Notes under the pieces: model-generated
What the model was told of the DNA's origin: nothing
Seen by the model: only the letters and a program-made list of their open reading frames with translations
Databases searched by the model: none
Program-made: the position numbers and the translations under genes
Shown here: positions 12,485 to 54,008 of the stretch, piece by piece
Layout: each line of letters starts with the position of its first letter
Position numbering within the stretch: the first letter of the stretch is position 1
Assembly: GCA_902554325.1 (NCBI GenBank)
Contig: CACDOH010000002.1
Location: 1 to 64,000 of the forward strand
Reading direction: 5' to 3'
DNA: 64,000 bases
Source of the DNA: an uncultured Pelagibacteraceae bacterium
Lineage (GTDB): Bacteria > Pseudomonadota > Alphaproteobacteria > Pelagibacterales > AG-422-B15

Positions 12485-13080
12485 TCTGAGACTGAAACAA
12501 TTTTCTCGATCAGCTTATCCAAATCATAATCATTGTTAGCTAGGAATGACTGAAATTCTTCTCGCTGCGCAATCACAAGACTGATGCCTTCAATATTTAA
12601 ATCAATGATTTTTATCTTATTGTCCTTATTTAAAAGTCTCCACTTAAGATTAATCTTAAGTGTGTCAGTTCCTTCCCTAATAATATTACTTTCAACAATC
12701 ACGTATTTGCCAGCCTCTTGTGATCCGACTACATCAACTTTTTCACCTGCATACTGGTCAAGTTTATTAGCGTACGAGCTTACAAAGTAATCTTTGAATG
12801 CAATTAAATATGCTTCTTTTTGTTCATCTGAAGCATTTTTCCATGCTTTAGATAAAACAAATTTAGAAATTAAATTAAGATCAATCGATGACATCACTAA
12901 TTCCGTAAAACTTGAAGTTCTTTCAGTGTCTGAAAGTGAATTATTACTTAAGATAGATATAGCCGAATTCGCAAATGACGCTACAAACTTTTCCTCTTCT
13001 GCAAAATTAGATGCAAGAACTGTCAGATTGAAACCGCAGCAAAGAAAAAGTATATAAATATGAAATCTAATCCTAGTCAT
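12481..13080 (-). CDS. mlaC: MlaC/ABC-type phospholipid-binding protein
   Basis: Signal peptide plus Tol-Tol-Ttg2 pattern (LISKFVLSKAWKNASDEQKEAYLIAFKDYFVSSYANKL); adjacent to mlaA. Confidence 0.85.
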   Translation of the reverse strand: MTRIRFHIYILFLCCGFNLTVLASNFAEEEKFVASFANSAISILSNNSLSDTERTSSFTELVMSSIDLNLISKFVLSKAWKNASDEQKEAYLIAFKDYFVSSYANKLDQYAGEKVDVVGSQEAGKYVIVESNIIREGTDTLKINLKWRLLNKDNKIKIIDLNIEGISLVIAQREEFQSFLANNDYDLDKLIEKIVSVSD

Positions 13081-43807: not shown

Positions 43808-43823
43808 AGTGGGAGACTTCTGT
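43808..43823 (+). repeat. att direct repeat, left (AGTGGGAGACTTCTGT)
   Basis: Identical to 53673-53688. Confidence 0.88.
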
Positions 43824-43871: not shown

Positions 43872-43891
43872 AGTGCGAAGTAGTGCGAAGT
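43872..43891 (+). repeat. arm-type repeat pair, left: AGTGCGAAGT x2 in perfect tandem
   Basis: Direct reading; same 10-mer recurs three times inside the right end. Confidence 0.85.
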
Positions 43892-44003
43892 TTTAGATCA
43901 AATCTTGAATAAAAAGTACTTATGTTTCAGTCGGCAAATCGACTAGGAACATCATTTTAGAGATAAAAATAGCGATTGAGTGTACTGATATCAAATTGCC
44001 CAA

Positions 44004-44025
44004 AATTGCCCTATATGGGGCAATT
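44004..44025 (-). terminator. possible terminator hairpin AATTGCCC-tatatg-GGGCAATT
   Basis: 8-bp perfect stem at the 3' end of the minus-strand gene 44024-44833. Confidence 0.5.
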
Positions 44026-44833
44026 ATGGATTTTCGATTCTCTTGATTTTAGGGAATGAACCTCTACCCAGATTGATCAAAAGTAGTTTTGCGAATTGTT
44101 TATCTCTTTGCGTCTTTTTGATCTCAGATAGATAATCAGACCTTATCGTTCCAGTCGTTCTACTTCCAAGACCACCTTTTGCATTTTCTCTTTCAATTTT
44201 AGGTATTTCAAATCTCTTTGACATTATCTTTTGTACTTGAAAATGTAATTGAAGATTATCATAGTCAGTAGTCAGACTTAATCTGAATGTATGAAATATC
44301 CGTTTCATCAAATTATCATCAACTTGATCTAGTATTATTCTTGCACTCTTTCTTGGTTTACTTTTCTTCTCTTTTTCTGTGTACCAAGTCCTAATGTCAT
44401 CAAGAATACTTCGTATTGGGTAATCATCTGGAATATGAATAAAACTACCTCCATTTAAATTATCAGCCATCTCAGACAGGGTCGGTGAAAAGGTTGTAGA
44501 TGGTTCAATAAAGTGAGGTCTATATCTATCGAAAAATGCATTATTGAATTTGTTAATGTCTCTTGGCAAATTCTTGATATCTGGTCGTATGAATTTAGGT
44601 GATTTCGGTATCTGTTTTGTATTGATTAAATTCCACCATTGATGATTTGAAAATCCTAATTTGAATTTCTTTTGTCTGACCTCAACCGATTGACCCTCTA
44701 ATTCTTTGAGTACTTTACACCACACCGCAAACCAACGATAGACAGGTCGATCAACTGATATTCTGCTGAAGTCCTCTTTTCTCAACCTTCGTTGTTCAGG
44801 TGTTCTAACTGATATTCTTCTTTTCACAGACAT
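44024..44833 (-). CDS. hypothetical protein, element-encoded
   Basis: 269-aa ORF, basic N-terminus; no family recognised. Confidence 0.65.
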   Translation of the reverse strand: MSVKRRISVRTPEQRRLRKEDFSRISVDRPVYRWFAVWCKVLKELEGQSVEVRQKKFKLGFSNHQWWNLINTKQIPKSPKFIRPDIKNLPRDINKFNNAFFDRYRPHFIEPSTTFSPTLSEMADNLNGGSFIHIPDDYPIRSILDDIRTWYTEKEKKSKPRKSARIILDQVDDNLMKRIFHTFRLSLTTDYDNLQLHFQVQKIMSKRFEIPKIERENAKGGLGSRTTGTIRSDYLSEIKKTQRDKQFAKLLLINLGRGSFPKIKRIENP

Positions 44834-44850
44834 TGATGTCTCATTTTATA

Positions 44851-44880
44851 CATTATTTTGTGTATCACAATAGTGTTAAC
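44851..44880 (+). promoter_or_regulatory. shared promoter/operator motif copy 1: CATTATTTTGTGTATCACAATAGTGTTAAC
   Basis: 26/28 identical to the reverse complement of 53523-53550; between divergent genes at 44833 and 44928. Confidence 0.65.
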
Positions 44881-44927
44881 AATACCTTGCTGTGTGTTAC
44901 CACCTAAAACTCCCATAAAATAGAGAT

Positions 44928-45365
44928 ATGAAAAAAGCAAAGATGAAAGATTTCGATACGATTTGGTCGGAATTTAAGAAAAATAGAGATGTCTTTCCTC
45001 ATATCAGAACGGACTATCTCAAAAGGCAAATCAAAAACAATAATGTGATCTATTACGAGGGAGTAATTCTCATATTCGGTGAATACAAGAGAAGAGGTAC
45101 TTTGGGTGATTTTCAATACAATAAAGGTGATCTTATTATTCATCAAATCTTGAACTCTCGAAAGGGTAATGGAAATGCAAGAATAATAATGAATAGATTT
45201 ATTACAGCCAACGACACTCAAAGTCGGTCAATAATTCTGAGTGTTAGATCAGCAAATACACGAGCAAGAAGATTCTACGAGAAAATGGGAATGTCGGTTG
45301 TTGGAAATATCTCTTGGTCTAAAGGTACGATTGGAGGTAAGATTTATGGATATGAAATCGAATAA
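44928..45365 (+). CDS. GNAT-fold N-acetyltransferase
   Basis: Acetyl-CoA loop-like RKGNGNARIIMNRF and C-terminal SVRSANTRARRFYEKMGMSVVG. Confidence 0.85.
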   Translation: MKKAKMKDFDTIWSEFKKNRDVFPHIRTDYLKRQIKNNNVIYYEGVILIFGEYKRRGTLGDFQYNKGDLIIHQILNSRKGNGNARIIMNRFITANDTQSRSIILSVRSANTRARRFYEKMGMSVVGNISWSKGTIGGKIYGYEIE

Positions 45366-46128
45366 AGTAGAAATAACTAAAATCATAGAGGCAGACGCAA
45401 AAGGTCTTTACTCAACAAGTATGATGAAAATGCCGACTACTGTTAAAGGGTTCAAACAAGTAGTTATGCAGAACTTTAAACTTGCAGATGGTTTTGAAAA
45501 ATTATCTGGTGTTGGTTTCTATGAAATTGGAAAAGCACTTCTCAAGGCAAAAGAAGAACTTAAACACGATTTCGGTAATCTAAAGAAAGAACTTGCAAAA
45601 GAAGGTCTGCACGAAAAGAAACAAGAGAGATATATGATGGTTGCAAATAGTGATGTTGTAAAAGATTACTATAATAAATTACCACCTGAATTTACTACTT
45701 GGTTAAAGTTAACTCAACTTCAGAACAAGATGATCAGTCAAAATAAAAGTGATCAATTTGATGATAGTATGAAACAACTAATCAACCCAAAGATGGTCTG
45801 GAAAGATGTTTCAGATCATTTCAAACTTAATGTACCTAGTACTAAAAAAAGGAGAGATCATTATGAGACTCATTACATATCAGTCGACTGGTCTAAAAAG
45901 GTACATAAAAAGGATAAGAAATTAGTAATGCAACTTGAAAAGGACTTAAAACAATTATTAAAGAAATATAAATTTGCAACATTGAAAAGAACAACAAATG
46001 CAAGTGGTGGATATGTTTATGATCAAGTCATTGACTTTGTAAAAGATAAAGTCTTGGAAGATGATACTGTTTCTACTACCAAGAAAGTTAAGAGACCAAC
46101 CTATTCAAATAAAAAACGATCGTATTGA
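45346..46128 (+). CDS. DUF3102-like protein
   Basis: FYEIGKALLKAKEELKHDFGNLKKELAKEGLHEKKQERYMMVANS resembles the DUF3102 helix pattern; start trimmed to ATG 45346 overlapping the GNAT stop. Confidence 0.6.
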   Translation: MDMKSNKVEITKIIEADAKGLYSTSMMKMPTTVKGFKQVVMQNFKLADGFEKLSGVGFYEIGKALLKAKEELKHDFGNLKKELAKEGLHEKKQERYMMVANSDVVKDYYNKLPPEFTTWLKLTQLQNKMISQNKSDQFDDSMKQLINPKMVWKDVSDHFKLNVPSTKKRRDHYETHYISVDWSKKVHKKDKKLVMQLEKDLKQLLKKYKFATLKRTTNASGGYVYDQVIDFVKDKVLEDDTVSTTKKVKRPTYSNKKRSY

Positions 46129-46338
46129 GCCGTGCAGGGGTAAAGTCGACCGACTTCTGACACTAATTTTATACTCGAAAAAAAATTTGAGATAAATTCT
46201 ACCAATACCTTTTGAGTTGTATTGTATCTAAAAGATTACTTATGGAATGTTTTCAGTTTAAAGGGGGGGGGTACTTACATATTACTCACATTGAAAGTCC
46301 GTATCCTCGTGTATCCTCCGTACAAGAAATCCTCAATT

Positions 46339-47058
46339 TTAGATCAATCCGACCTGTTTATATCTATTCTTTAAATCTTTATCAGATACTGATTTGTCTG
46401 GTCGTTCCCATTCTCTCATTCGTTTTCTTACCCATTTAACTTCTGGTTTGAAATATAAGTTAATATGTTTGTGTTGAAATTGGACTATCTCTTCTCGAAG
46501 TATCAATTGGTAATCAGTAGGTAATAATTTAGTTAACTTCTTTCTCTCAAGAACATATCTGAATTTTCTACTAACTTTCCCCAGGGGGATTATCTTCTTA
46601 ACACCATCATCAATCCAATAATTCCAGTAATGATTTTGAAATCTTAATTCTGAATTACGACTATCACCCATCAGATTGACTGTTTTGAACTTCGTCAACT
46701 TTTGTGTTTGTAATAAATGATCGTGAGTGAATTTAAGATTTGCAATTATCTTACCACCAGTAAAGTCTTTGATGTCTCTCTTTTGTGGTGTGACTATCTG
46801 ATCAATAGTCGTTTTCGGTTTGTCAGAATCTATTTTCGCAGCCCCAGAAAGGAAGGTCTCTAGATTGGGAATAGGGAAATCAAACTTAATCGGTTTATCT
46901 AATTTGAATGTGATTAACAAATCTCTCTTCGGATTGATGTAATATTGATTTTCACCTTTAGTGAATTTGAATTGTACAACCTTTGCATAATTTGCCTCTG
47001 CACAATGCACAATACCCCATAATATCTCTTTAATATAATCTGATACTTCGTACTTCAT
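46339..47058 (-). CDS. hypothetical protein coupled to the methyltransferase gene
   Basis: 239-aa ORF; start overlaps the 47055-48104 stop by 4 bp. Confidence 0.7.
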   Translation of the reverse strand: MKYEVSDYIKEILWGIVHCAEANYAKVVQFKFTKGENQYYINPKRDLLITFKLDKPIKFDFPIPNLETFLSGAAKIDSDKPKTTIDQIVTPQKRDIKDFTGGKIIANLKFTHDHLLQTQKLTKFKTVNLMGDSRNSELRFQNHYWNYWIDDGVKKIIPLGKVSRKFRYVLERKKLTKLLPTDYQLILREEIVQFQHKHINLYFKPEVKWVRKRMREWERPDKSVSDKDLKNRYKQVGLI

Positions 47059-48104
47059 TTCTTAAATATAAAGATTGGTTCTACTTTTGAATCTGCTTGT
47101 TGTGATGATAACTTGTAATAGAAAGTATCTACTAATTTGAACCCAACTTCTTTTGCAAGATCAACTGTATCATCTTCAAAAGTCTCATAAACATTTCTTA
47201 CATTTGCAACATTTAACGCACAGAATTTATTTGGTTTAAGACCATAGTACATATTCTGAATTGTCTTTTTGAGAAACTTTTGTTTCCAATCTGTAAGTTT
47301 TGAAAACTTTAAATAAGATTGTGTACTTTCATTCGAGTACTTTTCGGTGTCAAAATAGGGTGGACTTGTAAATGCAAAATCTAATGAATTCTTATCTGGT
47401 CGATATTCTTCACTCCCCATTGTCAATAATTCGTGATTTCTAGCCGATGACTTGAATGTCTGTGACATCTCTTTAAGACCTTTCATTGTCTGTTTGTTTG
47501 GGTCAGTACCAATGTAATTAACATCTGCCTTTATACTTGCGAGTAAACGACCACCCCAACCACAACTCATATCCCAAACTGTATCTCCTTTATCACAAAA
47601 TACTTTGTACAACATTGATGCAGTAATCGGTCTGAAGTTAGAGACCATTTGTGAACCAGTGACTCTTCTTAAAATGCCCCTGATCTTTTCTTTATTCGTA
47701 TTTGATTGAGTCATTAAATCTTCCCAATTATCTTCCTTTGCAAAGAATACACCCTTAATCTTCTTCCGTATTCCGTTAGAGAACATCTCTTTACTTTTGA
47801 AAACATCATAGGGTGAAGTTGAGTCTTTGCATTGTACTTTAAATGCGTGAGGGTGATATGACCACGCAAGAGTTAAACCTCCCTTATGAAATGTGAAAAG
47901 TCTATTTGCAAAGTCTAATGACTTTCTATCATCTACTTTCAAGAATTCTTTAAACTTTTGATCTCTAAATTTCTTATCGGTTGGGTAATATGGAAACTTG
48001 TTCTTTTGCCAGTACTTTACAATCTTGTCGGTTCTCTTATCAATGATTACTTCATTAGTAATAGACTTGTTCTTAATATTACCTCTACTTGTTAATAAAC
48101 TCAT
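47055..48104 (-). CDS. DNA methyltransferase-like protein (N4C/N6A amino-MTase type)
   Basis: Motif I-like DTVWDMSCGWGGRLLAS and catalytic TSPPYFDTEKY. Confidence 0.8.
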   Translation of the reverse strand: MSLLTSRGNIKNKSITNEVIIDKRTDKIVKYWQKNKFPYYPTDKKFRDQKFKEFLKVDDRKSLDFANRLFTFHKGGLTLAWSYHPHAFKVQCKDSTSPYDVFKSKEMFSNGIRKKIKGVFFAKEDNWEDLMTQSNTNKEKIRGILRRVTGSQMVSNFRPITASMLYKVFCDKGDTVWDMSCGWGGRLLASIKADVNYIGTDPNKQTMKGLKEMSQTFKSSARNHELLTMGSEEYRPDKNSLDFAFTSPPYFDTEKYSNESTQSYLKFSKLTDWKQKFLKKTIQNMYYGLKPNKFCALNVANVRNVYETFEDDTVDLAKEVGFKLVDTFYYKLSSQQADSKVEPIFIFKK

Positions 48105-48130
48105 AATCAGCCGTCAGACACTGGTGTCGG

Positions 48131-48358
48131 TTATTCCATAAATGCATCTAGACCGTGTTGTTGGTCTATGATCTCTTTTACATTGGTGTTTATATAAATC
48201 TGATTTTGTATCCATTCTAACTTTGTATCGTACAAGGGTGTATCTTGCCCCTGCATCTTCAAATTCTCTAACATAAAGGTTAGATAGATGACTTTCTGTT
48301 CTGGTGTTTTGGTAGTCATTTCTCTAATCATTTTTCTTTTACTCGGTACTTCGATCAT
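48131..48358 (-). CDS. small hypothetical protein (75 aa)
   Basis: Start trimmed to ATG 48358, preceded by AAAGGAG RBS on the minus strand. Confidence 0.65.
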   Translation of the reverse strand: MIEVPSKRKMIREMTTKTPEQKVIYLTFMLENLKMQGQDTPLYDTKLEWIQNQIYINTNVKEIIDQQHGLDAFME

Positions 48359-48465
48359 TTTATCTCCTTTACTTAATAGGTATCTAACCAATTTATCAAC
48401 GAACCTACAAGGTCTATTTTAACACACAATAGTTCACTATCAATCGCACTTCACTGCCTCTGATC

Positions 48466-48533
48466 GTGATACACAAAATTTATCGTCTCGTATCACGGAT
48501 ATTTAAAATTTGAGGGTAGGTGTGATACACAAA
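48466..48533 (-). promoter_or_regulatory. shared operator motif copies 2 and 3 (GTGATACACAAA at 48466 and 48522) plus opposite half-site at 48490
   Basis: Lies in the divergent intergenic region between 48358(-) and 48617(+). Confidence 0.6.
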
Positions 48534-48616
48534 GTTGGAATAACGCTTTTGGCATTTTGGTAACTCTTTAAAATGTAGTAGTCGCATTTGCAACCTCTAC
48601 AAGAAAGGAGAAAACT

Positions 48617-49294
48617 ATGAAAACTCTAGGTTATTTAAGAGTAAGTCATCTTGAGTCTTTAAATGGTACAAGTTTAGAGACACAAGAGAAAAGAATAAAA
48701 AACTACTGCGAATTGCAAGAATTCAGTCTTGATGATGTAGTTCAAGAAGTCGTTTCAGGGGCAACTGAATTCAGAAAAAGAACAGCCCTAAAAGAGAAAG
48801 TCGATAAGATGAAACGAGGTGATCGTCTAGTCGTATCAAGATTAGATAGATTATCCAGATCAACTTTGCATACACTTCAATTTGTTAACGAATGTAAATT
48901 AAAAGGAATTGAAATTCATATAACTGATCTTGGTTGTGTGACTAATGGTGGTGTTGGTCAGATCGTCTTTAATGTCTTATCTTGTCTTGCAGAGACAGAA
49001 CGAATTAATATCTCAGAAAGAATAAAGGCAAGTAAACATTTCGCAAAGAAAGAACGAAAGTATCTTGGTGGTGCATTAGAGTTCGGTTATTCAAAAGATG
49101 ATAACGGTAAACTAATCCCAAATGAAAAAGAATTCGTCATTTTACAATCAATGATGAATTTAAGAACGCAGGGGTTAGGGTATAGAAAAATTGCCGAAGA
49201 AATACTAAAGAAGTTCGGTAGAAAAATACACTACACCCAAGTTCATAAAATCATCAATCGTGAACACAATCAAACATTGTTGGAGGTTGCATAA
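48617..49294 (+). CDS. serine recombinase / resolvase family protein
   Basis: YLRVS, SGATEFRKRTALKEKVDKMKRGDRLVVSRLDRLSRS, LAETERINISERI; GAAAGGAG RBS. Confidence 0.93.
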   Translation: MKTLGYLRVSHLESLNGTSLETQEKRIKNYCELQEFSLDDVVQEVVSGATEFRKRTALKEKVDKMKRGDRLVVSRLDRLSRSTLHTLQFVNECKLKGIEIHITDLGCVTNGGVGQIVFNVLSCLAETERINISERIKASKHFAKKERKYLGGALEFGYSKDDNGKLIPNEKEFVILQSMMNLRTQGLGYRKIAEEILKKFGRKIHYTQVHKIINREHNQTLLEVA

Positions 49295-49536
49295 TGTACA
49301 TCTGTTCTAACTGTAATATCGAATTAACCAAAGAAGACCTTGATGCGTGTGAAGTGGTTTCAATCGGTAAACTTTATTGTCAAGATTGTTTACTCAATAA
49401 GGAAAGAGAAATCTTCGTAGATGATAAAGGTCTCTTAACTCACACTTGGGATAAGTACGAAAAGTTTGTACTTGAGTGTTGGAAGAAGAGAATAATGGAA
49501 GATGATTTGAGGTATCTAGATGAATACATTGTCTAG
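49294..49536 (+). CDS. small zinc-ribbon-like protein
   Basis: CSNC...CQDC spacing. Confidence 0.65.
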   Translation: MYICSNCNIELTKEDLDACEVVSIGKLYCQDCLLNKEREIFVDDKGLLTHTWDKYEKFVLECWKKRIMEDDLRYLDEYIV

Positions 49537-49768
49537 AGTATTCGTCATCTTATTGTTAACGACATCAATGTCTTTTGCCGAAGGTAAATGTACTTACAAC
49601 ACAACAACTATCATTGAGAACGGACAAGTTATCTCAAAGAAAGAAATCAAAGTTTGTGATGAAGTACAGCCGATCGGGTCAGAGTCGTTCTTAACCAAAG
49701 AAGAGAAAATGCAAATGTTTGAAACAGGATTGATTCTTACATTTCTTTTCATCTTAGAAAATATGTAG
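49520..49768 (+). CDS. small exported protein
   Basis: Signal peptide MNTLSRVFVILLLTTSMSFAEG and C-terminal hydrophobic helix. Confidence 0.6.
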   Translation: MNTLSRVFVILLLTTSMSFAEGKCTYNTTTIIENGQVISKKEIKVCDEVQPIGSESFLTKEEKMQMFETGLILTFLFILENM

Positions 49769-49781
49769 AAAGGAGGTGAAT

Positions 49782-50222
49782 ATGAAAAATATAATAATAG
49801 TGTCTTGTTTATTATTTCTCGTTGGTTGTTCTCAAACGAAAATGGTCAAAGATGAAGTAATACAGTTGAAAGGAAACAATCAATTACTACAGGTCAATTA
49901 TGAAATATGTAATGACTATAAATCTAACTCTGCAAAAGTTTATGGTTGTTCTAGTTCATTCAGTAAAGACCTAGAGATATCTAAATCTAAGTCATTACTT
50001 AATGCGAAGTCTGAAGTAATTGATACCTACAATTCCTCATTCAACCAATCCCAAACAATGTTAAGTCAAGATAACAAGAAAGGTATTGTCCTTGATTATG
50101 ATAATAAAATTGTAAATCAGATTAGTGATACAGTTTTGAATTATAAAGTCGAGTACTCTAAAACATTTCAAGAGGCAAATGGTTTTAGAACATTTACTGT
50201 TATCTCAATGGACTTGATCTAA
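49782..50222 (+). CDS. lipoprotein of unknown function
   Basis: MKNIIIVSCLLFLVGCSQ lipobox; start trimmed from 49776; AGGAGGTG RBS. Confidence 0.75.
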   Translation: MKNIIIVSCLLFLVGCSQTKMVKDEVIQLKGNNQLLQVNYEICNDYKSNSAKVYGCSSSFSKDLEISKSKSLLNAKSEVIDTYNSSFNQSQTMLSQDNKKGIVLDYDNKIVNQISDTVLNYKVEYSKTFQEANGFRTFTVISMDLI

Positions 50223-50225
50223 AAA

Positions 50226-50276
50226 AAAGAACCCATAAGATAGGAAGAGGGTCTCTCAAAGTCTTATGGGTTCTTT
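50226..50276. terminator. strong hairpin: 15-bp perfect stem AAAGAACCCATAAGA...TCTTATGGGTTCTTT
   Basis: Perfect inverted repeat with 21-nt loop immediately after the lipoprotein stop. Confidence 0.8.
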
Positions 50277-50331
50277 ATACGAAACTTCACAGACAAGAAG
50301 TTAATCTGCAAATTGATATAGTTATTAATAT

Positions 50332-50487
50332 TTATGCGTGTCGTCTTAAATCTTCACTAATGAGTTGTTGTATTCTGGTAGATAGAGGTATTCCATAAAA
50401 CTTTGTTTGTCTTAATTCGTTATACCTCTCTAGTGTTATTGGATCGAGAGTGATCATATGTCTTTTCTTTTTAGGTGTGTGTTGCAT
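50332..50487 (-). CDS. 51-aa putative ribbon-helix-helix regulator, not in ORF track
   Basis: MQHTPKKKRHMITLDPITLERYNELRQTKFYGIPLSTRIQQLISEDLRRHA*; RBS AAGGAT upstream. Confidence 0.6.
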   Translation of the reverse strand: MQHTPKKKRHMITLDPITLERYNELRQTKFYGIPLSTRIQQLISEDLRRHA

Positions 50488-50523
50488 TAATTATCCTTTT
50501 CAGCCGTGCAGGGGCAAAGTCGG

Positions 50524-50823
50524 TTAAAATTGTCGTTTGTTTTTATTATCAATGTGTCTGTTTCTCGATTTGTAAAGGTTCGTATTTAAATTCTTTGTTG
50601 CGTGTCTTACTTCATCACTACTATTGAGTACTTGTCTATTAGTGTCATATTCAGATGTCCTAATTACTTTTGATTTTGTACCTATGTATTTGTCATATAA
50701 TCCAAATTGATTAGTTGGTTGTCTCATCACCATATCTGTACCAATATTTCTGGTACTCTTTTGATTTTCTTTTTGTTGTTTTAGATGTCTTGCTTTCATC
50801 GAATAATGGAATGCGTCATTCAT
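50524..50823 (-). CDS. hypothetical protein
   Basis: 99-aa ORF, 4-bp overlap with the upstream small ORF. Confidence 0.5.
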   Translation of the reverse strand: MNDAFHYSMKARHLKQQKENQKSTRNIGTDMVMRQPTNQFGLYDKYIGTKSKVIRTSEYDTNRQVLNSSDEVRHATKNLNTNLYKSRNRHIDNKNKRQF

Positions 50824-50936
50824 AATAGTTTCCTTATCTCTTCTAGTATTAAGAAAATCTGATCTAGTTTCTCTTGTGTACTTAATTTTCTTTTTGCTTC
50901 GGTTATCTTTTGTTTAATCTTATCTTTTGAATTCAT
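50820..50936 (-). CDS. 38-aa small protein
   Basis: MNSKDKIKQKITEAKRKLSTQEKLDQIFLILEEIRKLL*; 4-bp overlap with 50823. Confidence 0.4.
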   Translation of the reverse strand: MNSKDKIKQKITEAKRKLSTQEKLDQIFLILEEIRKLL

Positions 50937-51082
50937 ACTAATATTTATCTTTCTCAGCCGTTCTAGTGACTGTCGGTGTGTGGTTAGTTTCGTAAGACGA
51001 TTGAACACTTCGTGTTCAAGTATCTGTTGTTGGTTATCAGGTAGGATACCTTTACCCCTACCTTATCTCTTGCGGATTATCT

Positions 51083-51138
51083 GGAGGTGGACTTCCCCTC
51101 CAATCGAACTAACGATTTTGGGAGGGGAAACCACTTCC
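51083..51138. other. long imperfect hairpin in an ORF-poor region (possible structured RNA or DNA site)
   Basis: GGAGGTGG/CCACTTCC, TTCCCCTCC/GGAGGGGAA and AATCG/CGATT stack around an AACTAA loop. Confidence 0.7.
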
Positions 51139-51594
51139 GAGAGAACCCAAATTATTCATTCCGAATATTTGCTTTGCGTCTTTACCTAGTCGGTGGTCTA
51201 AGAAATCAACTCTTACGAGGTTGTGGGGCAAACTGATCCACAATTACTTTACTTCCATTGTCTGCGACTGCATTACTCAACACTTTCTTAGATTCTGTTG
51301 TGCAGATGATGACCTATTGTTTTTCTATAAAAGTATTTCAACAATTACTCTAAAAACAACGAGGGGTGTCATTTCTATTCATCAAACTTTACTTCGTTTT
51401 TACAAGTTTAAGTTATTCTACTTCTTGAAGATAGCGGTGATCGTGTAATGTCGATCAAATATTTCCTCCTATATTCCGATATAATTCTATCTTTAATTCA
51501 CTCGGATATGTGTTTTACAAGGTATTTAAATAATCAAATTTAAATGTTGTATTAGTATATATAAGGATAGAGTCTTCTACGGGTGGAATAATTA

Positions 51595-52842
51595 CTATTT
51601 TCTGGATTTAACTTTGTTAATTCGTTTTGCATAGTATTTCTCGTATTCTTCAATCACATTATCGTCATCAGTATCGTGGTCATAGTGTTTTGCGATCATA
51701 TCAGGTGATGTATTGAATTTCTTTGCGACTACATCTACTAAATTACCGTCACTCAAGTCTCTTTTTGTTTGAAGGTGTCGTATTGAAGTCATTGGTCTAC
51801 TCTTACCATTGAAGTAATATACATTAACTTCTTTTGCGACTCGCACAAATGCGTCTTGCACCCAGTTATTGATCTGATTGCGATCTCTTTTGTCATCTTT
51901 AAAAAAGAAATAGTCTTTTGGGGAGTAGGTTTGAAATCTATCTCGCACATAATCACCATATTTTGTCATAAAATACGGGTCGGTTTGATAACTGAATTCT
52001 TTTTGCGTCTTTGTCGTTCCAACTAAGACTTTGATAAATTCGATATCGTCTTTTGTGTATAATAATTTCATTTGATCAGCCCGAAGAGACACAGTCTCTG
52101 AACCATATCGAGTGGTTGAAGATATTATGAACTGTAAATAGACATATAATTCTAAGTACATTGGGTCATTATTGAGTTCATATATCTTTAATACTCTATT
52201 TGTTATCTTTTGAAGATCAGTCATTCGATATGCTGGTCGTGCATTACTTCTTCTATCAACTGGTGGATTCTTAATTGTTAAGTTTAACAATCCATCTGCA
52301 ACACCTTGTTTGCAAATTAATTGAATGATGTTCAAGTACTTTGTGATTGTACTACCTTTAAGTACTTTACCATCTTCATTACCTCTTGTTGTCCATCTAT
52401 CGACTAATTCATCAACAGACTTTTGAATCAGGTCTCTATCGTTCATCGGTACATTACCAAGAAAAGGTTTGATCTCTTTTCTGTATCTTCTTAATTCAGA
52501 TATACCTGTGTTTCTGATTTTCATTCCTCTATCAATCTCTTTCATTCTGTTCTTGAGTTTGTAGTGGTGAATTCTTTGATCAAATGCTTTTTCAGCCGTA
52601 TCATTGAAAGTCTGTGAAGTTCTCTTGATATCGTACTTATCAAAATCAAATGACTTCCAGAGTCTAATTGCCTCTTTCTTACCCTCTGTTTTAGAAGTAA
52701 TAGGTTTTAACGACTTACGAAATAACCCATTAGAACTATAAGAAGGTGATACATAGAAAGAAACTTGGATATATTTACTTCGTTCTTGTTTGTAAATCTT
52801 GAGACTACCACCAAGTTTCTTTTGCCAGATTGTTTTACTCAT
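51595..52842 (-). CDS. tyrosine recombinase / phage-type integrase
   Basis: TTRYGSETVSLRADQM (Arg I), SIRHLQTKRDL (R-H box), AKHYDH catalytic Tyr; near the att site. Confidence 0.88.
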   Translation of the reverse strand: MSKTIWQKKLGGSLKIYKQERSKYIQVSFYVSPSYSSNGLFRKSLKPITSKTEGKKEAIRLWKSFDFDKYDIKRTSQTFNDTAEKAFDQRIHHYKLKNRMKEIDRGMKIRNTGISELRRYRKEIKPFLGNVPMNDRDLIQKSVDELVDRWTTRGNEDGKVLKGSTITKYLNIIQLICKQGVADGLLNLTIKNPPVDRRSNARPAYRMTDLQKITNRVLKIYELNNDPMYLELYVYLQFIISSTTRYGSETVSLRADQMKLLYTKDDIEFIKVLVGTTKTQKEFSYQTDPYFMTKYGDYVRDRFQTYSPKDYFFFKDDKRDRNQINNWVQDAFVRVAKEVNVYYFNGKSRPMTSIRHLQTKRDLSDGNLVDVVAKKFNTSPDMIAKHYDHDTDDDNVIEEYEKYYAKRINKVKSRK

Positions 52843-53452
52843 ATATTTCGCCTCTTAAAAATGCGTCTATGACTAAATGAATTCTTTCTTCATCACCATT
52901 TACGACTGAATGAGGTGTAGTCACATCAACTGCATATAGATGGTTCTCTTTCATATTAATTGAAACTTCTTTATCACCATAGACAGTCATTATTGCGTCT
53001 GGGTTGGTTTTAATCGGTATATGAAATCTTCTTAGTGGACAATCTTTTATCAGAAAATCTTTATCAACTTTATCGGTATGTTTCTTTATGACTGCATTAG
53101 GTTTTACTTTTAGTAATCTAACTCTATCAAGATCACAAAAGAATTGTCGTTTAAAATTTTCAACGATACTTGTTATTGATCTTAAGATATTCATTTCATA
53201 AATGAATGTTGGTCTAGTCTGATTATTAGTTTCAGAATTATTACCTAAGACTTTTGGTTTAGATAAATCATTTGGGTCGTCACTATAACCTATTAATGAT
53301 AATCCTAACCAGTCACCAGACTTACAACATTTCGTAGTCACATTTGACCACTCTGGTTCTTGTAAATACTTCAATGATAATCTGTGATTAGATTTATAAT
53401 GGCCGAAAGACATCAGTGTCGGTGCATATTCTATCGTTTCGTGTGTAAACAT
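52835..53452 (-). CDS. aspartyl/asparaginyl beta-hydroxylase-like 2OG-Fe(II) oxygenase
   Basis: HTDK...RRFHIPIKTNPDAIMTVYGDKEVSINMKENHLYAVDVTTPHSVVNGDEERIHLVID; start trimmed to 53452; 8-bp overlap with integrase start. Confidence 0.75.
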   Translation of the reverse strand: MFTHETIEYAPTLMSFGHYKSNHRLSLKYLQEPEWSNVTTKCCKSGDWLGLSLIGYSDDPNDLSKPKVLGNNSETNNQTRPTFIYEMNILRSITSIVENFKRQFFCDLDRVRLLKVKPNAVIKKHTDKVDKDFLIKDCPLRRFHIPIKTNPDAIMTVYGDKEVSINMKENHLYAVDVTTPHSVVNGDEERIHLVIDAFLRGEIYE

Positions 53453-53522
53453 ATTACTCTCTTTCTTTTTGTTATAGGTAAAGGATACACGATTTTGAAT
53501 GGGTAGCACGATCATCATTAAT

Positions 53523-53553
53523 GTTAACAGTATCGTGATACACAAAATAAATG
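53523..53553 (-). promoter_or_regulatory. shared promoter/operator motif copy 4: GTTAACAGTATCGTGATACACAAAATAAATG
   Basis: 26/28 match to reverse complement of copy 1; upstream of the 53452 gene. Confidence 0.65.
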
Positions 53554-53568
53554 GTCATTTGAAGCAAA

Positions 53569-53619
53569 AGTGCGAAGTCTTTTGAAGGGGTCAAAAAAGT
53601 GCGAAGTGAAGTGCGAAGT
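53569..53619 (+). repeat. arm-type repeats, right: AGTGCGAAGT at 53569, 53598 and 53610
   Basis: Direct reading; plus a degenerate AGTGTGAATC near 53628. Confidence 0.85.
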
Positions 53620-53672
53620 GATTCTGAAGTGTGAATCTGATGAATTTGAGATGAGATACTAATTCTGAAATT

Positions 53673-53688
53673 AGTGGGAGACTTCTGT
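53673..53688 (+). repeat. att direct repeat, right (AGTGGGAGACTTCTGT), the 3' end of ssrA
   Basis: Identical to 43808-43823. Confidence 0.88.
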
Positions 53689-53907
53689 TGCCCGGTGCCT
53701 CCCGAACCGCGCTTGCCTAATTGTATTAAGCAGCGAGCGCTAATTTATTGTTAGCATTTAAAAGTTAGCCCGATAACGGCGGTACAATGCCGAGAGAAAA
53801 ACTTACCTTTAAACATTCGTCGATCCTATATCACCCCCTAAAATTGGTGGAGGTGCCGGGTACCGCCCCCGGGTCCGTAATGGGTATTACGTAAGCCGTT
53901 TATCTCT
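53674..53907 (-). ncRNA. ssrA: circularly permuted (two-piece, alphaproteobacterial type) tmRNA
   Basis: Minus strand: acceptor piece ...CCGGGGGCGGTACCCGGCACCTCCACCA, 6-nt spacer, coding piece GGGGGTG...; 7-bp acceptor stem GGGGGTG/CACCTCC; tag ORF GCTAACAATAAATTAGCGCTCGCTGCTTAA = ANNKLALAA* at 53755-53726; 5' limit approximate. Confidence 0.92.
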
Positions 53908-54008
53908 ATAGCTAGGATATCCCCAGCAATCTGAATATAGTTTGATATTGGATCTTTTTAAAGAGGCTATTCTTATTATAATATGCCATTATTATTTGAT
54001 TCACAAAA

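What the first reader, a model, noticed from the sequence alone, without database searches (positions are those of the whole stretch)
43872..53619. AGTGCGAAGT arm-type repeats inside both ends of the element
Seen: two perfectly abutting copies at 43872-43891 (about 50 bp inside the left att). Three perfect copies lie at 53569, 53598 and 53610, plus a degenerate one near 53628 (about 55-105 bp inside the right att). A partial reverse copy (TCGCACTTCACT) lies at 48444. Established: lambda-type integrases bind short direct repeats in the attP arms. Inference: these are the P and P' arm sites, and they support the element boundaries independently.
Basis: partly seen in the sequence, partly recalled or inferred. 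Interest (0 to 1): 0.72.

Follow-up and report, generated by a model that had tools for sequence, protein, structure and literature searches.

The report
Integrase arm sites of a tmRNA-integrated element
Five copies of a ten-letter word near the two ends of a 9.9 kb mobile element in a SAR11-type (Pelagibacterales) ocean bacterium are almost certainly the docking sites that its integrase uses to insert the element into, and cut it out of, the tmRNA gene; related elements, and even gene-sized elements without an integrase, keep the same layout of sites.

Summary
AGTGCGAAGT occurs exactly at 43872, 43882, 53569, 53598 and 53610, and nowhere else in the 1.17 Mb genome. The 'degenerate' copy at 53628 and the 'partial reverse' copy at 48444 are no better than chance.

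The element boundaries are real. The 16-bp core AGTGGGAGACTTCTGT at 43808 and 53673 is the 3' end of a permuted tmRNA gene, and sister genomes have the empty site.

The arm-site reading is strongly supported by comparison:
- Four other elements with related tyrosine integrases (tmRNA twice, tRNA-Leu, groEL terminator) each carry their own private repeat, at least 2+2 copies, just inside both ends. About 100,000 random window pairs gave 1 such case.
- Three of the five repeats share CGAAGT. Spacings are conserved: window -107,-78,-66 | +61,+71; G182 -117,-72,-60 | +57,+69,+80.
- A sister remnant keeps the abutting pair, with the same C-to-T change in both copies.

An unforeseen find: integrase-free cassettes (0.7-1.1 kb, different cargo genes) at the same tmRNA site. 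Some reproduce the arm word and intra-arm spacings (11,12 / 12,45) of an integrase-bearing element from another family. They look mobilised in trans. Binding itself is untested.

The parts
43808..43823 (+). left att core AGTGGGAGACTTCTGT (attL side)
   Evidence: identical to 53673-53688; joins directly to the tmRNA in empty-site sister genomes L010, L015, L020
43872..43881 (+). arm-type site, P' arm, copy 1 (centre +61 from core centre in attP)
   Evidence: conserved with C to T in both copies in G043/L050 at +61/+71
43882..43891 (+). arm-type site, P' arm, copy 2 (centre +71), abutting copy 1
53569..53578 (+). arm-type site, P arm, lone outer copy (centre -107)
   Evidence: lone outer site also in G182 and G368 (-117.5)
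53598..53607 (+). arm-type site, P arm, pair copy 1 (centre -78)
53610..53619 (+). arm-type site, P arm, pair copy 2 (centre -66; 12 bp from the previous copy, as in G182)
53628..53637 (+). degenerate copy AGTGTGAATC (3 mismatches): probably not a site
   Evidence: 3-mismatch matches are at chance level; no site at the matching position (-48) in G182 or G368
53673..53688 (+). right att core, the 3' end of the tmRNA gene (attR side)
53673..53966 (-). permuted alphaproteobacterial tmRNA gene (integration target), tag ANNKLALAA
   Evidence: RF01849, 237.7 bits, E 1.8e-68, full model; ARAGORN tmRNA*
51595..52842 (-). tyrosine integrase (415 aa): N-terminal beta-beta-beta-alpha domain, R245, K278, R355-H356, Y387; box II H replaced by T352
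   Evidence: family alignment A1; relatives hit PHROG integrase 3.4e-20 and Phage_integrase; model similar to Cre, Xer and lambda Int folds
52835..53452 (-). aspartyl/asparaginyl beta-hydroxylase-like gene overlapping the 5' end of the integrase gene; its upstream region is the P arm (start codon chosen by eye; the listed ORF runs to 53545)
   Evidence: PF05118, E 3.4e-10
48617..49294 (+). serine recombinase, the gene most widely shared in this element family
   Evidence: PF00239 7.7e-29; homologues in G182, G368, G010, G124, G280
49294..50222 (+). three small genes (80 aa; 82 aa; 148 aa) shared with the G010 element; two of them also with G182 and G368

Best explanation
The five AGTGCGAAGT copies are arm-type binding sites for the N-terminal domain of the element's own tyrosine integrase (51595-52842). 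In the circular element they flank the 16-bp core: a lone outer site and a pair 12 bp apart on the integrase side (P arm), and an abutting pair on the other side (P' arm). Integrase would bridge arm and core sites, with help from bending proteins, and exchange strands in the core, which copies the 3' end of the tmRNA gene, so that insertion leaves the tmRNA intact. Shown: positions, exclusivity, empty site, core identity, and the same kind of arrangement in related elements. Inferred: binding by the integrase, the bridging, and the need for accessory proteins.
For: All five genomic copies lie within 105 bp of the two cores. Empty sites in sister genomes place the insertion exactly at the core. 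Elements with related integrases carry private direct repeats at both ends: TCAACGAAGT (G182, tmRNA), TCTACGAAGT (G368, tmRNA), TTCCTCACT (G280, groEL terminator), ACTTTCGCA (G010, tRNA-Leu). 5 of 5 elements score, against 1 of about 100,000 random window pairs. Intra-arm spacings are conserved while most of the DNA between sites is not (pairwise attP identity 46-57% between families), so the conserved columns fall mainly on the sites and the core. The sister remnant G043/L050 keeps the abutting pair at +61/+71 with the same C-to-T change in both copies. The P side is the integrase side in the window, G182 and G368. The window's N-terminal domain is most like those of G182 and G368 (37%, 35%), whose sites share CGAAGT, and least like that of G280 (20%), whose sites do not. 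The integrase model has a beta-beta-beta-alpha N-terminus like known arm-binding domains (PMC8138268).
Against: No binding data. No relative with an integrase closer than 28% was found, so identical sites in an orthologue could not be checked. The structure model is of moderate confidence (pLDDT 69.5, pTM 0.47). The box II histidine of the catalytic centre is T in this copy and Y in the relatives, so activity of this copy is not certain. Accessory (IHF, Xis) sites were not identified.
Confidence: 0.93

Rival explanations
1. The repeats are operator sites for a regulator of the hydroxylase-integrase operon, and the left pair is incidental.
For: The right-hand copies lie upstream of the hydroxylase-integrase operon, next to a separate operator-like motif at 53533. 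Integrase genes whose promoter overlaps an att site can be autoregulated (PMC2951348), so the two roles need not exclude each other.
Against: The left pair is upstream of no gene (the nearest gene, 44024-44833, runs toward it). Cassettes without an integrase or any operon keep sites at both ends. No sigma-70-like promoter was seen between 53380 and 53700.
Confidence: 0.04
2. They are iterons or strand-recognition sites for replication of the excised circle.
For: Short direct repeats clustered on both sides of the joined ends of a circle could look like an origin (layout).
Against: Positions are fixed relative to the recombination core in unrelated elements and in cassettes of 0.7-1.1 kb with a single cargo gene. 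The repeats are split by the integration site itself.
Confidence: 0.02
3. Chance clustering or a low-complexity repeat.
For: Short words recur in AT-rich genomes; 12 scattered copies occur in 42 sister genomes.
Against: 0 of 100 shuffles reached 5 copies, 0 copies elsewhere in the genome, and conserved layouts in relatives.
Confidence: 0.01

Closest known systems
Phage lambda attP with heterobivalent Int (arm-type sites P1, P2, P'1-P'3; PMC4880445)
   Same: Short direct arm sites on both sides of a core, five sites in all, an integrase with an N-terminal domain of the arm-binding type, and tandem sites on the P' side (site layout of lambda partly from memory).
   Different: Arm and core sequences differ, the target is a tmRNA gene, accessory protein sites are unknown here, and the integrase is too divergent for the Pfam Phage_integrase model to hit this copy.
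ssrA (tmRNA)-specific islands of Dehalococcoides (PMC3146451)
   Same: Site-specific insertion at the 3' end of the tmRNA gene, tandem islands separated by short ssrA direct repeats, many of them without an integration module.
   Different: Those use a serine recombinase (DsiB), and the passages read describe no arm-site repeats. Here a tyrosine integrase with arm sites is used, and the smallest units are single-gene size.
Cis-mobilisable elements (CIMEs; reviewed in PMC5704250)
   Same: The integrase-free cassettes in sister genomes have attL and attR but no recombination genes, and occur in tandem arrays.
   Different: CIMEs are decayed relatives of integrative elements. Here conserved ends with an intact arm set surround different cargo genes, which fits repeated mobilisation in trans better than decay alone.
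Tycheposons (mentioned e.g. in PMC10872708) and marine phage satellites such as PICMI (PMC10803314)
   Same: Small integrative elements of marine bacteria.
   Different: No shared hallmark gene was tested or found here. Relationship rests on general resemblance only; only the abstracts were seen.

Membership tests
Lambda-type attP / arm-binding tyrosine integrase system | Tyrosine recombinase encoded by the element, with the catalytic residues R, K, H, R, H and Y | tested here: met
   R245, K278, R355, H356 and Y387 are invariant in the family; the exception is box II position 352, T instead of H (Y in the four relatives); Foldseek to Cre, Xer and lambda Int with E below 1e-4
Lambda-type attP / arm-binding tyrosine integrase system | N-terminal arm-binding domain (three beta strands and a helix) | tested here: inconclusive
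   Predicted strands 13-18, 25-30, 40-44 and helix 51-64 at pLDDT about 70-80; full-length lambda Int 1z1b is among the hits, 405 alignment columns; no Pfam arm-domain hit
Lambda-type attP / arm-binding tyrosine integrase system | Direct-repeat arm sites on both sides of the core, private to the element | tested here: met
Lambda-type attP / arm-binding tyrosine integrase system | Core identical to the chromosomal target; empty site in relatives | tested here: met
Lambda-type attP / arm-binding tyrosine integrase system | Arm layout conserved in elements with related integrases | tested here: met
   exact triple array found at only 3 places in 397 genomes, all of them element ends
Lambda-type attP / arm-binding tyrosine integrase system | Integrase N-terminal domain binds the arm sites | not testable with these tools
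   needs EMSA or footprinting
Lambda-type attP / arm-binding tyrosine integrase system | Bending-protein (IHF, Xis/RDF) sites between arms and core | not tested
   no consensus available for this host; no RDF gene identified
CIME (for the integrase-free cassettes in sister genomes) | attL and attR present, no recombination or transfer genes | tested here: met
   units of 685, 842, 957 and 1042 bp between cores, all shorter than the 1245-bp integrase gene
CIME (for the integrase-free cassettes in sister genomes) | Derived by decay of a full integrative element | tested here: inconclusive
   ends conserved (about 83-97%) around different cargo, and no full B-type element found in that genus

The most novel reading that the evidence does not exclude
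In SAR11 the tmRNA site is served by a set of tyrosine integrases, each with its own private arm word. Gene-sized cassettes without an integrase copy a given integrase's six-site attP (arm word and intra-arm spacings), so they move in trans: a single-gene cassette system addressed by arm code rather than by core sequence. The window element uses the AGTGCGAAGT code, and its attP arms are inverted relative to the tmRNA core when compared with the G182 and G368 elements.
Probability: 0.45. Interest if true: 0.72.

Novelty: new member of a known kind. Interest (0 to 1): 0.5.

Why it matters
Arm sites are usually found by footprinting one phage at a time. Here comparison alone gives the arm words and layouts of at least five integrases in SAR11, among the most abundant bacteria in the ocean, where the papers searched say little about such elements. 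Because the word differs between related integrases while the layout stays, one can ask which residues of the N-terminal domain read it, and whether the small integrase-free cassettes are mobilised in trans by matching arm words.

Tried and rejected
Close relatives of the integrase were not found in viral contigs or GenBank phages. The genome-contig scan found only Pelagibacteraceae single-cell genomes or MAGs at 23-28%. The abutting-pair pattern in viral contigs gave two unrelated chance hits with no core, tmRNA or element genes, and the B-type triple gave none. A further distant tyrosine recombinase in G071 (L101) shows no arm-type clusters and is not counted. G124 (contig ends near the integrase), G278, G173 and G263 (integrase fragments) could not be scored at both ends. 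The reverse partial copy at 48444 and the degenerate copy at 53628 were rejected as chance. Paper searches for SAR11 satellites or islands at tmRNA found nothing on this family.

Full report
Observation. AGTGCGAAGT occurs at 43872, 43882, 53569, 53598 and 53610, all on the + strand, and nowhere else in the 1.17 Mb own genome. One-mismatch copies and three-mismatch copies, including those at 53628 and 48444, are at or below chance. In 42 other genomes of the genus the word occurs 12 times in all, never clustered, the most in any one genome being two on different contigs.

Boundaries. The 16-mer AGTGGGAGACTTCTGT is identical at 43808-43823 and 53673-53688. The right copy is the 3' end of a permuted tmRNA gene (RF01849, 53673-53966 minus). 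Sister genomes G045, G061 and G081 (L010, L015, L020) have window sequence up to 43823 joined directly to 53673 or within a few bases of it: an empty site. The element, with one core, is 9,865 bp.

Integrase. ORF 51595-52842 has no convincing Pfam hit on its own. It aligns with four proteins of 23-28% identity in the same order, some of which hit PHROG integrase (3.4e-20) and Phage_integrase. R245, K278, R355, H356 and Y387 are invariant; the box II histidine is T here and Y in the relatives. The AlphaFold2 model (pLDDT 69.5) has an N-terminal beta-beta-beta-alpha unit and matches Xer, Cre and lambda Int structures. That is the expected domain plan of an arm-binding integrase (PMC8138268; PMC4880445).

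Relatives carry the same arrangement with different words. G182 (L059) and G368 (L062), in another family of the order, sit at the same tmRNA gene: TCAACGAAGT and TCTACGAAGT, three copies beside the tmRNA and two to four (some with mismatches) at the far end next to the integrase stop codon. G280 (L061) sits at the groEL terminator, with TTCCTCAC two and three times. G010 (L100), of the window's own genus, sits in tRNA-Leu(CAA) with ACTTTCGC two and two times. Requiring an 8-mer present at least twice in the 150 bp inside each end, all five elements pass; random window pairs pass once in about 100,000. Three words share CGAAGT; the others are less alike.

Layout. With the repeat read forward, site centres relative to the core centre are: window -107,-78,-66 | +61,+71; G182 -117.5,-72.5,-60.5 | +57.5,+69.5,+80.5; G368 -117.5,-72.5,-61.5 | +58.5,+70.5,+81.5; G010 -107.5,-87.5 | +75.5,+86.5. 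Core centres are defined slightly differently between genera (1-2 bp, more for G010, whose identical stretch is 39 bp), so within-arm spacings are the safer comparison. In the window, G182 and G368 the lone-plus-pair arm is on the integrase side. Relative to this, the tmRNA-derived core of the window element is inverted with respect to G182 and G368, so the elements lie in opposite orientation at the same target (inference).

Coordinated change. G043 (L050) holds a 306-bp remnant with the same left end (80% identical), in which both abutting copies read AGTGTGAAGT, at +61 and +71 exactly as in the window. G025 (L052) has a more decayed left end (AGTGGGAAG AAGTTTGAAGT).

Integrase-free cassettes. 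At the same tmRNA site other sister genomes hold tandem units between core copies. Units of 842, 957 and 1042 bp in G039 and G008, too short for the 1245-bp integrase gene, have ACTTCGTTG sites at both ends (one end of the 1042-bp unit keeps a single copy), with about 92-97% identical ends around different cargo. G008: -80,-69,-57 | +60,+72,+117; G182 turned the same way: -80.5,-69.5,-57.5 | +60.5,+72.5,+117.5. The intra-arm spacings 11,12 and 12,45 are identical and the word is the same, while the attP as a whole is about 57% identical. The triple array occurs at only three places in 397 genomes: G008, G182 and G368. A 685-bp unit in G039 has a further word, AGTGTCTAGT, at -92,-80,-68 | +59,+70. 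No full B-type element was found in the cassette-bearing genomes. The simplest reading is mobilisation in trans by an integrase that reads the same arm word; decay of full elements (CIMEs, PMC5704250) is the alternative.

Element family. The window element shares a serine recombinase, a lipoprotein gene and a small secreted-protein gene with G182, G368 and G010. No capsid or terminase gene was seen among the families searched; the search was not exhaustive.

Verdict. The arm sites are a new member of a known kind; the comparative layout and the cassettes add the interest.

Noticed in passing
L043:16014-18631, L047:17844-18817, also L046, L048, L058 (tmRNA locus of sister genomes): Tandem cassettes of about 0.7-1.1 kb without an integrase, with conserved ends carrying arm sites and different cargo genes, between copies of the tmRNA core.
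   Followed up: partly
window 44858-44870, 48464-48476, 48520-48532, 53533-53545: Operator-like dyad TTGTGnnnCACAA (one perfect, three with one mismatch) in front of transcription units of the element; a 32-nt stretch is 91% identical in inverted orientation at 44853 and 53519. Suggests a regulon of the element; the regulator is unknown.
   Followed up: partly
L059:11637-12377, L062:13376-14005, window 46339-47058: The G182 element encodes a T4 gp45-like sliding clamp (phrog_223 1.5e-41; PDB 1b77 7.9e-13) and the G368 element a T4-like clamp loader (phrog_168 3.2e-53); the window gene hits phrog_223 weakly (4.9e-5). Possible satellites of T4-like pelagiphages.
   Followed up: partly
L061:7380-7515 and 12792-12890: A related element is inserted at the groEL transcription terminator (AAAAAAAAAGGGCAG...), not at an RNA gene: an unusual target.
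   Followed up: partly
window 52835-53452: An aspartyl/asparaginyl hydroxylase-like gene overlaps the 5' end of the integrase gene as one apparent operon; its role in a mobile element is unexplained.
   Followed up: no
L085:2895-4331: An integrase 99% identical to that of G182 in a single-cell genome (AG-422-F10), with the far-end core and arm sites next to tRNA-Leu(GAG) instead of the PPDK-like gene seen in G182.
   Followed up: no
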